DNA of 64,000 nucleotides from Fusobacterium massiliense (GTDB lineage Bacteria > Fusobacteriota > Fusobacteriia > Fusobacteriales > Fusobacteriaceae). Where the stretch lies: contig NZ_LT608326.1 in assembly GCF_900095705.1 (NCBI RefSeq), positions 186,001 to 250,000 of the forward strand. The letters are read 5' to 3'. A model generated the notes under the pieces. The model was not told the DNA's origin. It saw only the letters and a list, made by a program, of their open reading frames with translations, and ran no database searches. Position 1 is the first letter of the stretch. Every line of letters begins with the position of its first letter. The translations under genes were made by a program, and so were the position numbers. Below are positions 33,817 to 39,057 of the stretch, one piece after another.

Positions 33817-34983
33817 CTATTTTATTTCTTCTTCTAATGCTTTTGATAAACCTTTTTGAACTTCTTCATTTTGTTCAGGCACACACAATCCGTCTCCTAA
33901 AACACTACAATAAGTTGCTTCTTGTTTCTTAGCTTCTTCTTTTGTTACTGTTTTAACTTCAGTTTCACTAGCTGAAGTTGCTGCTGGACTTGCTCCAGGT
34001 TCTGGTATTATTTTTCCAGTTTTTATTTCTTCGTAGTATTTTAATAGTTCATCTTTTTGAGCTGTTTTTGCTAAATTTTCAAGTTTTTCATAAGCTTCTT
34101 TATCTCCTGAATCAAAAGCTGCTTTAAATTTAGTTAACATTCTTTTATTCTTTTCTATGAATTCTGCACTTGCTGTTATTGGTTCTCCAGTTTGAGCAGG
34201 TGCTGCTGGACTTGCTCCAGGTTCTGGTATTATTTTTCCAGTTTTTATTTCTTCATAGTATTTTAACAGTTCATCTTTTTGAGCTGTTTTTGCTAAATTT
34301 TCAAGTTTTTCATAAGCTTCTTTATCTCCTGAATCAAAAGCTGCTTTAAATTTAGTTAACATTCTTTTATTCTTTTCTATGAATTCTGCACTTGCTGTTA
34401 TTGGTTCTCCAGTTTGAGCAGATACTGCTGGACTTGCTCCAGGTTCTGGTATTATTTTTCCAGTTTTTATTTCTTCATAGTATTTTAACAATTCATCTTT
34501 GTTGGCTGTTTTTGCTAAATTTTCAAGTTTTTCATAAGCTTCTTTATCTCCTGAATCAAAAGCTGCTTTAAATTTAGTTAACATTCTTTTATTCTTTTCT
34601 ATAAATTCTGCACTTGCTGTTATTGGTTCTCCAGTTTGAGCTTTTGGTGCTTCTTTCTTTTCTACTGGTTTTTTAGCAGCAGGTTTCTTTTTAACAGGTA
34701 TTTCTACTTCAACACCCATTATTTCACCAATTTTTCCTGCAACTTTAGGTCCTCCTGGTGCACACAATGTCATCTTAGCTCCCTCTTGAGCAACCCCTGT
34801 AGCGTACCCTGAACATCCAGGATATCCACAAGCTCCACAGTTTACTCCAGGTAATATAGCCAAGATTGCTTCTACTTTAGGATCTTTTTCTACTTCAAAC
34901 TTCTTTGAAGCATATGCTAAAAATAGACCCATTAATACTCCAGTTATTCCCATTACAACAACTGGTATTAAAATCGCTTCCAT
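33817..34983 (-). CDS. rnfB: RnfB subunit with three tandem 74-residue repeats
   Basis: 388 residues from ATG 34983, behind GGAGGT. An N-terminal membrane anchor (ILIPVVVMGITGVLMGLFLA) is followed by the RnfB Fe-S domain, with cysteines in GVNCGACGYPGCSGYA and MTLCAPGG. Then, after a KKKPAAKKPVEKK linker, come three nearly identical 74-residue repeats (33970-34650, period exactly 222 bases). The C-terminus (TYCSVLGDGLCVPEQ) has only two cysteines. The usual C-terminal two-[4Fe-4S] ferredoxin domain of RnfB is not present. Last gene of the rnfCDGEAB operon. Confidence 0.88.
   Translation of the reverse strand: MEAILIPVVVMGITGVLMGLFLAYASKKFEVEKDPKVEAILAILPGVNCGACGYPGCSGYATGVAQEGAKMTLCAPGGPKVAGKIGEIMGVEVEIPVKKKPAAKKPVEKKEAPKAQTGEPITASAEFIEKNKRMLTKFKAAFDSGDKEAYEKLENLAKTANKDELLKYYEEIKTGKIIPEPGASPAVSAQTGEPITASAEFIEKNKRMLTKFKAAFDSGDKEAYEKLENLAKTAQKDELLKYYEEIKTGKIIPEPGASPAAPAQTGEPITASAEFIEKNKRMLTKFKAAFDSGDKEAYEKLENLAKTAQKDELLKYYEEIKTGKIIPEPGASPAATSASETEVKTVTKEEAKKQEATYCSVLGDGLCVPEQNEEVQKGLSKALEEEIK
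33970..34650 (-). repeat. 222-bp in-frame tandem repeats inside rnfB
   Basis: Three copies at a period of 222 bases (for example CTGGACTTGCTCCAGGTTCT begins at 33984, 34206 and 34428). They encode TGEPITASAEFIEKNKRM, then KAAFDSGDKEAYEKLENLAK and GKIIPEPGASPA in each unit. Nearly identical DNA suggests recent or homogenised duplication. Confidence 0.92.
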
Positions 34984-35007
34984 ATTTACCTCCATTTGTA
35001 TAAGTTA

Positions 35008-35592
35008 TTAAATTTGCATTCCACTAAATCCCATAAATGCCATAGCTAGTAATCCTGCTGTTACAAATGCTATTGGAACACCCTTAAAGTTTTTAGGGAT
35101 ATTTGCATATTCTAATTTTTCTCTTATACCAGCTAAAAGTAATAAAGCTAATGAAAATCCAACTGCAACACCAAAACCATTAACTATTGTTTCTATAAAA
35201 TTATACCCAGCTTGAATATTTAATATAGCAACTCCTAGAACAGCACAGTTTGTTGTGATTAATGGTAAGAAAACTCCCAAAGCTTTGTATAAACTTGGAG
35301 ATGTTTTTTGAATTGCCATTTCAACAAATTGAACTAATGAAGCTATTATTAATATAAAAGCTATTGTTTGTAAATATTCCAACCCTAAAGGTTTTAATAT
35401 TAAAGTATATACTAACCAAGTTATTCCAGATGCTATTGTTATAACGAATGTTACCGCCATACCCATTCCTAAAGAAGAGTCTATCTTTTTAGAAACTCCC
35501 ATAAAAGGACAGCATCCTAAGAATTTAGCAAATATAATATTATTTATAAATATTGAACTAACTATTATAGTAAATAATCCACCTATATTCAT
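35008..35592 (-). CDS. rnfA: RnfA subunit
   Basis: 194 residues, six-helix membrane subunit. It contains NNIIFAKFLGCCPFMGVSKK with the conserved cysteine region and FLPLITTNCAVLGVAIL. It overlaps rnfE by 4 bases. Part of the Na+/H+-pumping ferredoxin:NAD+ oxidoreductase in the inner membrane. Confidence 0.94.
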   Translation of the reverse strand: MNIGGLFTIIVSSIFINNIIFAKFLGCCPFMGVSKKIDSSLGMGMAVTFVITIASGITWLVYTLILKPLGLEYLQTIAFILIIASLVQFVEMAIQKTSPSLYKALGVFLPLITTNCAVLGVAILNIQAGYNFIETIVNGFGVAVGFSLALLLLAGIREKLEYANIPKNFKGVPIAFVTAGLLAMAFMGFSGMQI

Positions 35593-36206
35593 TTCTTAGC
35601 CACCTTCTTTTTCTTAGCATCTCTTTCTTTCTTTATATTTATACAAGCCATTATCATTCCTATTGTTATAAATCCTCCAGGAGCAAGTACAAAAATTAAA
35701 GCCGGACTAAAATTTTCTGGAACTAAAGAAACTCCAAATATTGATCCATTTCCTAAAATTTCTCTTATTGATCCTAAGAAAGTTAATGATAATGTAAATC
35801 CTATTCCTGATCCAATACCGTCAAGTATAGAGTCAAACACTCCATTTTTAGATGCAAAACTTTCTGCTCTTCCTAGAACTATACAGTTTACAACTATCAA
35901 AGGAATAAAAATTCCTAGTACACTATATAACTCTGGAGTATATGCATGCATAACCATATCAACAACTGTAACCAATGATGCTATTATCATTATAAAAGCT
36001 GGTATTCTAACTTGATCAGGGATAAACTTTTTAAATGTAGATATCAAACCATTTGAACAAGCAAGAACTGCTATAACTGCAAGCCCCATTGAAAAACCAT
36101 TCAAAGCACTATTTGTTACCCCTAATGTTGGACATAAACCTAACATTAATACAAATACCGGATTTTCCTTAAATATTCCCGCTGTAAGTATTCCTAATTT
36201 TTTCAT
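35589..36206 (-). CDS. rnfE: RnfE subunit
   Basis: 205 residues, membrane subunit homologous to RnfA: ENPVFVLMLGLCPTLGVTNS and FIPLIVVNCIVLGRAESFA. A short basic tail (KKERDAKKKKVAKK) ends it. Overlaps both neighbours. Confidence 0.94.
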   Translation of the reverse strand: MKKLGILTAGIFKENPVFVLMLGLCPTLGVTNSALNGFSMGLAVIAVLACSNGLISTFKKFIPDQVRIPAFIMIIASLVTVVDMVMHAYTPELYSVLGIFIPLIVVNCIVLGRAESFASKNGVFDSILDGIGSGIGFTLSLTFLGSIREILGNGSIFGVSLVPENFSPALIFVLAPGGFITIGMIMACINIKKERDAKKKKVAKK

Positions 36207-36739
36207 TATTGACTCACCTCAGCTTTATAGTTTTCCAATGCTCTCATAATACCAGTATAAACTGCACGTGGAGATATAGTAGCTCCAGCAAAAGCATCTA
36301 CTGCCTTATCAAATTTATAAGAGTCATCTCTTCCTATCCATTGTTGTTGCCATTTTTTACCTGTAACTTTTGCTCCTAGCCCTGGTGTTTCTGATTGACT
36401 AATTACATTAAGTCCTGTTATTTTTGCATCATTATCTATACCAACAACAAAATTTATATCTCCTGCATATCCTGGTTGAGCAACTGAAGCTACATAACCA
36501 ACTACAGCTCCACTTTCATCATATCCAGGAATATATTGTATTCCATCAACTTCTTTAGCTTCTTCTTCTTTAAATGTGCTAGCTGATGGTAAAACTTCTA
36601 CTCTTGCTTCATTTACTATTTTTAAAGCATTTTCAGCTATAACCTTACTTGTAAATCCATTTACAGTTCCTAAAATTCCAGCTGATATTGCAGCTATTAG
36701 ACCAAGGACGATTCCAAAATGTATATATCTATTTTCCAT
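36206..36739 (-). CDS. rnfG: RnfG subunit (flavoprotein)
   Basis: 177 residues: one N-terminal membrane helix, then the periplasmic FMN-binding domain. GATISPRAV near the C-terminus holds the threonine expected to carry covalent FMN. QSETPGLGAKV is also typical. It overlaps rnfD by 11 bases. Confidence 0.94.
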   Translation of the reverse strand: MENRYIHFGIVLGLIAAISAGILGTVNGFTSKVIAENALKIVNEARVEVLPSASTFKEEEAKEVDGIQYIPGYDESGAVVGYVASVAQPGYAGDINFVVGIDNDAKITGLNVISQSETPGLGAKVTGKKWQQQWIGRDDSYKFDKAVDAFAGATISPRAVYTGIMRALENYKAEVSQ

Positions 36740-37676
36740 TTTTGCTCACCCCTCCAAATTTCTTAGGTCTTATATATCTATCTATTAGAGGTACAACACC
36801 ATTCATTATTAAAATTGCATATGCAGTTCCTTCTGGGTATCCACCTTTCATTCTTATTAAAGAAATCAAAACACCTAAACCTAATGCAAATACAACTCTA
36901 CCATTTGTTGTTGTTGGACTTGTAACCATATCAGTTGCCATAAAGAAAGCTCCTAAAAATAAACCTCCTGATAAAATTTGCATTAAAGGATCTTCTGCTC
37001 CTAAAGCCCAAGTCAATACAAATACTGTACCTATCATAACTGCTGGAACTTTCCAGTCAATATGTTTTTTATAAATTAAATATATTCCTCCAACTAATAA
37101 TGCTAAAGCTGAAGTTTCTCCTAAAGAACCTCCCATTTGTCCTAAAAATGCTTGAATATGTGGATTTCCTCCTTCAATTAATGCATCTGTTAAAGGTTTT
37201 CCAAATTTCATAGCACTTAAAACTGTTGGTCCTCCTTTTCCATCGTAAGCAAATGTTGTTATTGCTACTGGCCAAGAAGCTTGAACAAAAGCTCTTCCTA
37301 TTAGTGCTGGGTTAAATATATTGTGTCCTAGTCCTCCATATACCATTTTTCCTAATGCTATTGCCACTACACACCCAACTACAACATATTGTAACGGCAT
37401 AATTACTGGAACTACGAATGAAAATAATATACCTGTTAAAATAGCACTTCCATCAAAGGCTTCTATATCTCTTTTCAATGCCTTTTGGCATATATATTCT
37501 GTAACTATACAAGTTAGTACTGCCACAACAGTCAAGATAAAAGCTCTTATCCCAAAAGTATATACAGCCATAGCAAACGCTGGTATCAAAGCTATAACAA
37601 CATCATACATTACCGACTCGACAGTTTCCGCTGTTCTGATATGAGGAGCTGGTCCTGTTTTCAAAATTGTACTCAC
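36729..37676 (-). CDS. rnfD: RnfD subunit
   Basis: 315 residues, polytopic. Signatures are GPAPHIR at the start, GGLGHNIFNPALIGRAF in the middle and MVTSPTTTNGRVVFALG, where the covalent FMN threonine is expected. It encodes the membrane partner of RnfG. Confidence 0.94.
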   Translation of the reverse strand: MSTILKTGPAPHIRTAETVESVMYDVVIALIPAFAMAVYTFGIRAFILTVVAVLTCIVTEYICQKALKRDIEAFDGSAILTGILFSFVVPVIMPLQYVVVGCVVAIALGKMVYGGLGHNIFNPALIGRAFVQASWPVAITTFAYDGKGGPTVLSAMKFGKPLTDALIEGGNPHIQAFLGQMGGSLGETSALALLVGGIYLIYKKHIDWKVPAVMIGTVFVLTWALGAEDPLMQILSGGLFLGAFFMATDMVTSPTTTNGRVVFALGLGVLISLIRMKGGYPEGTAYAILIMNGVVPLIDRYIRPKKFGGVSKNGK

Positions 37677-37701
37677 TTTTTTCCTCCTTAATTAGTTTAA
37701 T

Positions 37702-39015
37702 CTACTTTTTCTTATTTTTAGCTCTTAATTTACTTTTTCCAGTCTTGATAGCTTCAGCCAATGGTCTGTTAGCTGGACAAATATATGAACAAGAACCACA
37801 TTCTATACAATCCATTAAGTTGTGTTCTTCCATAGTATCGTATTCCTTAGCTGCTGCTAATCTATCAAACATAAGTGGTGCAAGCCCCATAGGACAAGCT
37901 GACACACATTTTGAACAACTTATACATGATTTTGTCTTGTAAGGTCTCATTTCTTCAGTTGTTAGAGCTAAAAGTCCTGAAGTACCTTTTATTACTGTTG
38001 CATCTTCTGTCATTTGAGAAAGTCCCATCATTGGTCCTCCCATAACAAGTCTTTCCATTTTTTCTCTTTCAATTCCACAATTATCAAGAATATATGAGAA
38101 TGGTGTTCCTATTGCAACTTTTATATTTTTTGGAGTTTTTATAGCTTTTCCTGAAACAGTAACAACTTTTTCTATTAAAGGTTTTCCATTTACAACTGCT
38201 TCGTATATTGCTGCTGCTGTTCCTGTATTTTGAACTACAACACCAACTGCTGATGGTAATTGTCCTGATGGAACTTTTCTATCTAAAATAGATTTTATAA
38301 GTTGTTTTTCTCCACCTTGTGGATATTTAGTTTTCAATGGAACTATATTTATTCCAGTTCCTTCACTTGCTTTTCTCATAGATTCGATAGCTTCAGGTTT
38401 ATTATCTTCAATTCCAACATATACATCTTTTACATCTAGAATTTTTTTGATAATTTTAATTCCTTCTACTATAGACTTAGGATTTTCAAGCATTAGTCTA
38501 TTATCTGAATTTAAATACGGTTCACACTCTGCTCCGTTTAAAAGTAAAGTATCAATTTTAGTATTTGCTGGAGGATTTAATTTTACATGAGTAGGGAATG
38601 TTGCTCCTCCTATACCTACTATTCCTTTTTCTCTAATTAGGTCAAGCAATTCTTTTCTATCTGCTTTTTCCCAATCTTCAATTTTACTCAAATCTGCCCA
38701 TTTTTCTTCTTTATCATTTTCAATGAAAACTGTCATCACTTTTCCTGATAAAGGGAAAACACGATTTTCAATTTTAGTTACAGTTCCACTTACTGGCGAA
38801 TGAACAGGTACCGCTAGCCCTTCTGCATCTCCAATCTTTTGTCCTTTTAAAACTTTATCTCCAACATTAACAAGAGGATTTAAAGGTGCTCCTATATGTT
38901 GTAGAAGAGGGACAAAAATCTCGTTTGGAGATTCCAATCTTTCAATTGGTAAATGTTCTGTTTGTAATTTATTTTCAGGAGGATGTACGCCGCCTCTGAA
39001 ACCAAAAAACTTCAT
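37702..39015 (-). CDS. rnfC: RnfC subunit
   Basis: 437 residues from ATG 39015 (AAAGGAG upstream; the frame opens at 39033). N-terminal barrel domain FRGGVHPPENK, NADH/FMN region with GIGGATFPTHVKL, then two [4Fe-4S] motifs, CISCSKCVSACPMG and CIECGSCSYICPANRP. It is the NADH-side subunit. First gene of the operon. Confidence 0.95.
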   Translation of the reverse strand: MKFFGFRGGVHPPENKLQTEHLPIERLESPNEIFVPLLQHIGAPLNPLVNVGDKVLKGQKIGDAEGLAVPVHSPVSGTVTKIENRVFPLSGKVMTVFIENDKEEKWADLSKIEDWEKADRKELLDLIREKGIVGIGGATFPTHVKLNPPANTKIDTLLLNGAECEPYLNSDNRLMLENPKSIVEGIKIIKKILDVKDVYVGIEDNKPEAIESMRKASEGTGINIVPLKTKYPQGGEKQLIKSILDRKVPSGQLPSAVGVVVQNTGTAAAIYEAVVNGKPLIEKVVTVSGKAIKTPKNIKVAIGTPFSYILDNCGIEREKMERLVMGGPMMGLSQMTEDATVIKGTSGLLALTTEEMRPYKTKSCISCSKCVSACPMGLAPLMFDRLAAAKEYDTMEEHNLMDCIECGSCSYICPANRPLAEAIKTGKSKLRAKNKKK

Positions 39016-39057
39016 CAAAAACACTCCTTTCATAATAGTTTATTTTCCACTTAGAGA

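What the first reader, a model, noticed from the sequence alone, without database searches (positions are those of the whole stretch)
33817..34983. RnfB without its ferredoxin domain but with three identical 74-residue repeats
RnfB normally carries a C-terminal two-[4Fe-4S] ferredoxin domain that accepts electrons from ferredoxin. Here only the N-terminal Fe-S motif is present, followed by three nearly identical 222-bp repeats and a tail with two cysteines. Either electrons enter by another route or the repeat acts as a docking arm. Such near-identical repeats are also likely to vary in number among strains.
Basis: partly seen in the sequence, partly recalled or inferred. Interest (0 to 1): 0.6.

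Follow-up and report, generated by a model that had tools for sequence, protein, structure and literature searches.

The report
Rnf ion pump without ferredoxin domain
A small group of Fusobacterium species has lost free ferredoxin and has also lost the ferredoxin-accepting domain of its Rnf ion pump, which carries three copies of a new helical module instead; this suggests a pump refitted to take electrons from flavodoxin.

Summary
rnfB, last gene of an intact rnfCDGEAB operon in Fusobacterium massiliense, keeps the membrane helix and N-terminal [4Fe-4S] domain but has no ferredoxin domain. In its place are a lysine-rich linker, three 74-residue repeats (96-99% DNA identity) and a tail, YCSVLGDGLCVPE. 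It is no local deletion: both other genomes of the genus have the same layout with repeats about 60% identical to these, under purifying selection. Other Fusobacteriaceae keep a Fer-domain RnfB. No separate gene supplies the domain. The unexpected part is genome-wide: the three genomes have no free Fer4-type ferredoxin (only NifJ, RnfC and, in F. massiliense, sulfite reductase carry Fer4) and no [FeFe] hydrogenase, whereas all 58 other Fusobacteriaceae genomes searched have ferredoxin. They keep long-chain flavodoxin, the most acidic of those compared. Best explanation: NifJ reduces flavodoxin, which feeds the RnfB N-terminal cluster directly; linker, repeats and tail form a docking tether. 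Domain loss and co-loss are shown; electron route and docking are inferred. A second Fer-less RnfB (about 105 aa, no repeats) occurs in four Leptotrichiaceae genomes that do have ferredoxin. New variant of a known kind.

The parts
33817..34983 (-). rnfB variant without ferredoxin domain (open frame extends to 34995; likely start ATG 34983, 388 aa)
34696..34983 (-). membrane helix and N-terminal [4Fe-4S] shuttle domain of RnfB (Cys 53, 56, 61, 78)
   Evidence: PF04060 at 48-80; matches 7zc6, 9eri, 8ahx RnfB
34633..34695 (-). lysine-rich linker VKKKPAAKKPVEKKEAPKAQT
   Evidence: sequence; KKKP..KK pattern kept in both relatives
34411..34632 (-). repeat 1 (74 aa)
34189..34410 (-). repeat 2 (74 aa)
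33994..34188 (-). repeat 3 (core; its linker is shorter)
33862..33924 (-). conserved tail with YCSVLGDGLCVPE (C-x7-C)
   Evidence: YCSVLGDGLCVPE identical in four copies from three genomes
35008..35592 (-). rnfA
   Evidence: TIGR01943 275.6 bits, above cut-off
35589..36206 (-). rnfE
   Evidence: TIGR01948 266.5 bits, above cut-off
36206..36739 (-). rnfG, FMN-attachment motif DAFAGAT
   Evidence: TIGR01947 147.2 bits, above cut-off
36729..37676 (-). rnfD
   Evidence: TIGR01946 373.4 bits, above cut-off
37702..39033 (-). rnfC with NuoF-like FMN domain and intact two-cluster Fer4 region
   Evidence: TIGR01945 645.7 bits; Pfam

Best explanation
This is a working Rnf complex converted from a ferredoxin to a flavodoxin customer. 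In this lineage the free ferredoxins, the [FeFe] hydrogenases and the ferredoxin domain of RnfB are all gone, while pyruvate:ferredoxin oxidoreductase (NifJ) and a very acidic long-chain flavodoxin remain. NifJ reduces flavodoxin. Flavodoxin hydroquinone gives one electron to the only cluster left in RnfB, the N-terminal shuttle [4Fe-4S]; that domain swings to the RnfA/E [2Fe-2S] site, and electrons go on through RnfG, RnfD and RnfC to NAD+, driving the ion pump. The lysine-rich linker, the three flexibly linked helical repeats and the C-x7-C tail replace the ferredoxin domain as a tether and docking arm that raises the local concentration of flavodoxin. Shown: domain loss, repeat and tail conservation and selection, absence of Fer4 ferredoxin and hydrogenase, retention of flavodoxin, intact core and output subunits. 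Inferred: flavodoxin as donor, direct transfer to the N-terminal cluster, docking role of linker, repeats and tail.
For: All three genomes of the genus share linker, three repeats and tail. Repeats are under purifying selection: G001 versus G002 dS 1.2-1.4, dN 0.06-0.10; YCSVLGDGLCVPE is identical in all four tail copies. A ferredoxin profile finds nothing in these three genomes but 5-36 matches in each of the 58 other Fusobacteriaceae genomes. Fer4 at E<=10 finds only NifJ, RnfC and, in F. massiliense, AsrA/AsrC, plus one hit at E 5.8. [FeFe] hydrogenase is absent from the three, present in the 8 other Fusobacteriaceae tested. Long-chain flavodoxin is present in 90 of 98 genomes, including NifJ-bearing Leptotrichiaceae without ferredoxin, e.g. 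G092, so flavodoxin alone probably serves NifJ there. The genus' FldA carries net charge -24 to -26, against -15/-16 in its closest orthologs and -11 to -21 in the other long-chain flavodoxins of other genera compared. Literature: Rnf oxidises flavodoxin (Chowdhury 2016, known here only as a reference cited in PMC9588780); the N-terminal cluster shuttles to RnfA/E (PMC12174285, PMC11889175); a Lys/Arg-rich RnfB end was proposed as a 'fishing hook' for ferredoxin (PMC11889175).
Against: No biochemistry. Ferredoxin loss, hydrogenase loss and domain loss may all lie on one branch, so the association is not replicated. The four Leptotrichiaceae genomes with a Fer-less RnfB do have ferredoxin, so losing the domain does not by itself imply a change of donor. 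Nothing shows that the repeats bind flavodoxin: they have about no net charge and no recognisable structural relative. The acidity comparison was made after the hypothesis. Non-Fer4 ferredoxins (plant-type Fer2) were not searched for.
Confidence: 0.6

Rival explanations
1. NifJ (or another oxidoreductase) docks on the repeats and hands electrons straight to RnfB without a soluble carrier.
For: One or two NifJ copies are retained in each genome; three tethered modules could scaffold an enzyme.
Against: NifJ has ordinary length in these genomes (1190-1220 versus 1168-1211 aa elsewhere), so no matching extra domain is evident. Flavodoxin is kept and conserved (81-84% identity). Direct channelling into Rnf is not known to me.
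Confidence: 0.12
2. The repeats are only a spacer or assembly element (for example holding RnfC in place of the lost RnfB-RnfC contact); any reduced carrier gives electrons to the N-terminal cluster directly, as presumably in the minimal RnfB of Leptotrichiaceae.
For: Leptotrichiaceae RnfB of 103-108 aa works, if it works, with no replacement module. In known structures the soluble RnfB part contacts RnfC (PMC9588780, PMC11889175), so its loss might need a structural substitute.
Against: Strong purifying selection on repeats and an invariant 13-residue tail motif fit a specific interaction better than a mere spacer, though not a structural contact.
Confidence: 0.25
3. The C-x7-C tail is itself a redox or metal site (half of a cluster, or a dithiol) that receives electrons at the end of the repeat arm.
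For: Both cysteines and the nine residues around them never vary; G002 carries the motif twice, giving four cysteines.
Against: Two cysteines do not make a known Fe-S motif alone; no family or structure matches; only a very weak Fer4_15 hit (14 bits, below cut-off) for the duplicated tail.
Confidence: 0.15
4. Decayed or non-redox Rnf.
For: Loss of a domain regarded as central to ferredoxin oxidation.
Against: All other subunits are intact, score above curated cut-offs, and RnfA/RnfE show low dN with high dS; the N-terminal FeS domain is conserved.
Confidence: 0.04

Closest known systems
Rnf complex (ferredoxin:NAD+ oxidoreductase); RnfB of PDB 7zc6 (Clostridium tetanomorphum), 9eri (Na+-translocating), 8ahx
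   Same: Same operon type; all six subunits; same RnfB membrane helix and N-terminal [4Fe-4S] shuttle domain
   Different: No C-terminal ferredoxin domain (2-7 clusters in characterised RnfB, PMC12174285); Lys linker, three helical repeats and C-x7-C tail instead
Rnf of other Fusobacteriaceae, incl. Fusobacterium nucleatum type rnfCDGEAB
   Same: Gene order; close sequence in all six subunits; N-terminal RnfB 55-68% identical
   Different: Those RnfB carry 2-5 Fer4 motifs, and the genomes have ferredoxin
Minimal RnfB of four Leptotrichiaceae genomes (G066, G081, G085, G086)
   Same: No ferredoxin domain
   Different: About 103-108 aa, no linker, repeats or tail; the genomes have ferredoxin
Flavodoxin-dependent Rnf activity of Acidaminococcus fermentans (Chowdhury 2016, cited in PMC9588780)
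   Same: Proposed donor is flavodoxin
   Different: RnfB of that organism was not examined here; the paper was not held
Na+-NQR
   Same: Same membrane core with the input subunit replaced (NqrF for RnfB; PMC12174285, PMC4014512)
   Different: NqrF is an NADH-oxidising FAD/[2Fe-2S] subunit; here RnfB itself is kept in part

Membership tests
Rnf complex | all six subunits RnfABCDEG encoded together | tested here: met
   rnfCDGEAB at 33817-39033
Rnf complex | NAD-binding RnfC with FMN domain and two [4Fe-4S] | tested here: met
   PF01512, Fer4 families, TIGR01945 645.7 bits
Rnf complex | RnfB N-terminal membrane helix and FeS domain | tested here: met
   PF04060 44.2 bits; TIGR01944 84.8 bits, above its cut-off 68.7, over residues 6-99; matches solved RnfB
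Rnf complex | RnfB C-terminal ferredoxin domain with two or more [4Fe-4S] as ferredoxin acceptor | tested here: not met
   no Fer4 match and no CxxCxxCxxxC motif; no separate gene
Rnf complex | ferredoxin:NAD+ oxidoreductase activity coupled to ion transport | not testable with these tools
   needs biochemistry; no free Fer4 ferredoxin found in the genome
Flavodoxin-dependent Rnf | flavodoxin hydroquinone drives NAD+ reduction | not testable with these tools
   long-chain flavodoxin gene is present and conserved in all three genomes; activity not measured
Pentatricopeptide (PPR)-like repeat | PPR family match in a single repeat | tested here: not met
   no PPR family among Pfam hits of single repeats; designed PPR chains score only by summing weak stretches, none passing alone
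BTHB domain (PF18410) | domain-length match above cut-off | tested here: not met
   28.4 bits only as a sum over three repeats; single repeat 16.3 bits over 21 residues, below the cut-off 25.6

The most novel reading that the evidence does not exclude
A dedicated flavodoxin:NAD+ ion pump in anaerobes that have given up free ferredoxin altogether, in which a newly evolved tandem helical module and an invariant C-x7-C tail take the place of the polyferredoxin input domain as a flavodoxin-docking arm.
Probability: 0.4. Interest if true: 0.75.

Novelty: new variant of a known kind. Interest (0 to 1): 0.62.

Why it matters
Published Rnf mechanisms start with ferredoxin reducing a multi-cluster domain of RnfB. 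Here are natural Rnf operons in two families without that domain, one of them in organisms without free Fer4 ferredoxin. They make two questions testable: whether the N-terminal cluster alone is enough as electron entry, and whether an Rnf pump can be specific for flavodoxin. A ferredoxin-free fermentation with PFOR and Rnf could also be a way to save iron in a host-associated anaerobe.

Tried and rejected
Separate gene carrying the missing domain: rejected. Local deletion, assembly artefact or strain oddity: rejected, same layout in two further genomes with diverged repeats. Tail as a remnant of the ferredoxin domain: by eye CSVLGDGLC recalls the GCLGYGDC stretch of relatives, but spacing and flanks do not align; not pursued. 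PPR or BTHB membership of the repeat: rejected. Fold of a single repeat: three helices, pLDDT 88, but Foldseek gave no match with E below 2 and VIA-align Z at most 5.0 with generic helical bundles, so no fold family is named. Repeat or tail elsewhere in the phylum: nothing convincing (best outside the genus E 0.0015 for the repeat, 0.28 for the tail). The RnfA/E tree lacked several genera because of a narrow search pattern and was not used.

Full report
Identity of the genome. 

Anatomy. The operon is rnfC-D-G-E-A-B on the minus strand, 39033 to 33817. RnfB matches RnfB models and solved RnfB structures over its first ~100 residues only: a membrane helix and the FeS domain with four cysteines. 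Then come VKKKPAAKKPVEKKEAPKAQ, three 74-residue repeats, and a tail with YCSVLGDGLCVPEQNEE. Tandem Repeats Finder scores the array 1268, against at most 66 for anything else in the window.

Not an accident of one strain. G001 and G002 have RnfB of 393 and 440 residues with the same kind of linker, three repeats and tail. G002 has the tail motif twice. Repeats are 57-66% identical between F. massiliense and the other two, and 80-95% among those two. Between G001 and G002 the repeats show dN 0.06-0.10 with dS 1.2-1.4, so they are under purifying selection. Within G002 the copies are 84-87% identical in DNA, hence old; within F. massiliense they are 96-99%, hence recently homogenised. A short-read assembly could miscount such near-identical copies, but the count of three also stands in the two genomes where the copies are distinguishable.

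Distribution. Of 98 Fusobacteriota genomes, 65 have an RnfB match. In the other Fusobacteriaceae genera the open frames are about 294-366 aa; all 27 that I read (L005-L031) have 2-5 canonical Fer4 motifs. The repeat and tail profiles hit only this genus convincingly. Separately, four Leptotrichiaceae genomes have RnfB that stops after the FeS domain at about 103-108 aa, in operons with other rnf genes; in G085 the frame from the first possible start is 128 aa.

The genome-wide finding. A profile of the Fer domain of relatives found no stand-alone gene for it in the three genomes. A profile of free 2[4Fe-4S] ferredoxins found none in the three, while each of the 58 other Fusobacteriaceae genomes (G004-G061) gave 5-36 matches. 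The general Fer4 model at E<=10 found only NifJ, RnfC and, in F. massiliense alone, the AsrA and AsrC sulfite reductase subunits (named by eye); one further hit at E 5.8 is noise. The [FeFe] hydrogenase domain is absent from the three and present in all 8 other Fusobacteriaceae tested. G000 and G001 are at least 99% complete, G002 91%, so incomplete assembly does not explain this. Plant-type [2Fe-2S] ferredoxin was not searched.

What remains as a carrier. Long-chain flavodoxin occurs in 90 of 98 genomes, including Leptotrichiaceae that have NifJ but no ferredoxin, such as G092. The genus' main flavodoxin is 81-84% identical between F. massiliense and its two relatives, closest to that of G037 and G038, and has net charge -24 to -26 against -15/-16 in those orthologs and -11 to -21 in the other long-chain flavodoxins of other genera compared; a second paralogue within the genus is at -4 to -6. 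This comparison was made after the idea arose and is supportive only.

Mechanism proposed. In known Rnf structures the C-terminal RnfB domain accepts electrons from ferredoxin and the N-terminal FeS domain carries them to the RnfA/E [2Fe-2S] site (PMC12174285, PMC9588780, PMC11889175). Flavodoxin can serve Rnf: PMC9588780 cites Chowdhury et al. 2016 on sodium-dependent reoxidation of flavodoxin by Rnf; that paper itself was not held. [quoted passage not shown] I therefore propose NifJ to flavodoxin to the RnfB N-terminal cluster, with linker, repeats and tail as a docking tether. The A. woodii paper suggests that a Lys/Arg-rich C-terminal region of RnfB could be a 'fishing hook' for ferredoxin; the Lys-rich linker here is a possible analogue for an acidic flavodoxin. 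Electron route and docking are inference.

Limits. The co-loss may be a single event on one branch, so it is one data point. The Leptotrichiaceae cases show that the Fer domain can be missing while ferredoxin is present, which weakens any simple rule. No complex was modelled. The single-repeat model is confident (pLDDT 88, three helices) but matches nothing specific.

Novelty. In the open-access papers searched I found no description of an Rnf without the RnfB ferredoxin domain or of ferredoxin loss in Fusobacterium; most subscription papers were not searchable. I rate it a new variant of the Rnf complex.

Noticed in passing
L035:9499-9885, L036:976-1302, L037:9962-10273, L038:9795-10106: Four Leptotrichiaceae genomes encode a minimal RnfB of about 103-108 aa (membrane helix plus FeS only) in rnf operons; in L035 an ApbE-like gene (by eye) lies directly downstream. 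Apparently a separate loss of the ferredoxin domain, or an early form without it.
   Followed up: partly
whole genomes G000, G001, G002: No free Fer4 ferredoxin and no [FeFe] hydrogenase in this genus, unlike the other Fusobacteriaceae tested.
   Followed up: yes
L135:3054-3557 (G000:C6:457553-458056), L140:1173-1670, L145:937-1434: The genus' long-chain flavodoxin is unusually acidic (net -24 to -26); a second long-chain paralogue next to a ThiF-like gene is far less so (-4 to -6).
   Followed up: partly
36729-37676 (RnfD): The putative RnfD flavinylation motif reads DGKGGPT in F. massiliense where the two relatives have DGKAGAT: Thr kept, Ala replaced by Pro.
   Followed up: no
L134:69-2214 (G000:C6:348568-350713): Anaerobic sulfite reductase-like genes (AsrA/B/C by eye) in F. 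massiliense; their Fer4 hits are absent from G001 and G002.
   Followed up: no
33979-34641: The second half of the repeat (DELLKYYEEIKTGKIIPEP) resembles the end of designed PPR repeats by profile, without passing for any single repeat; probably convergent.
   Followed up: partly
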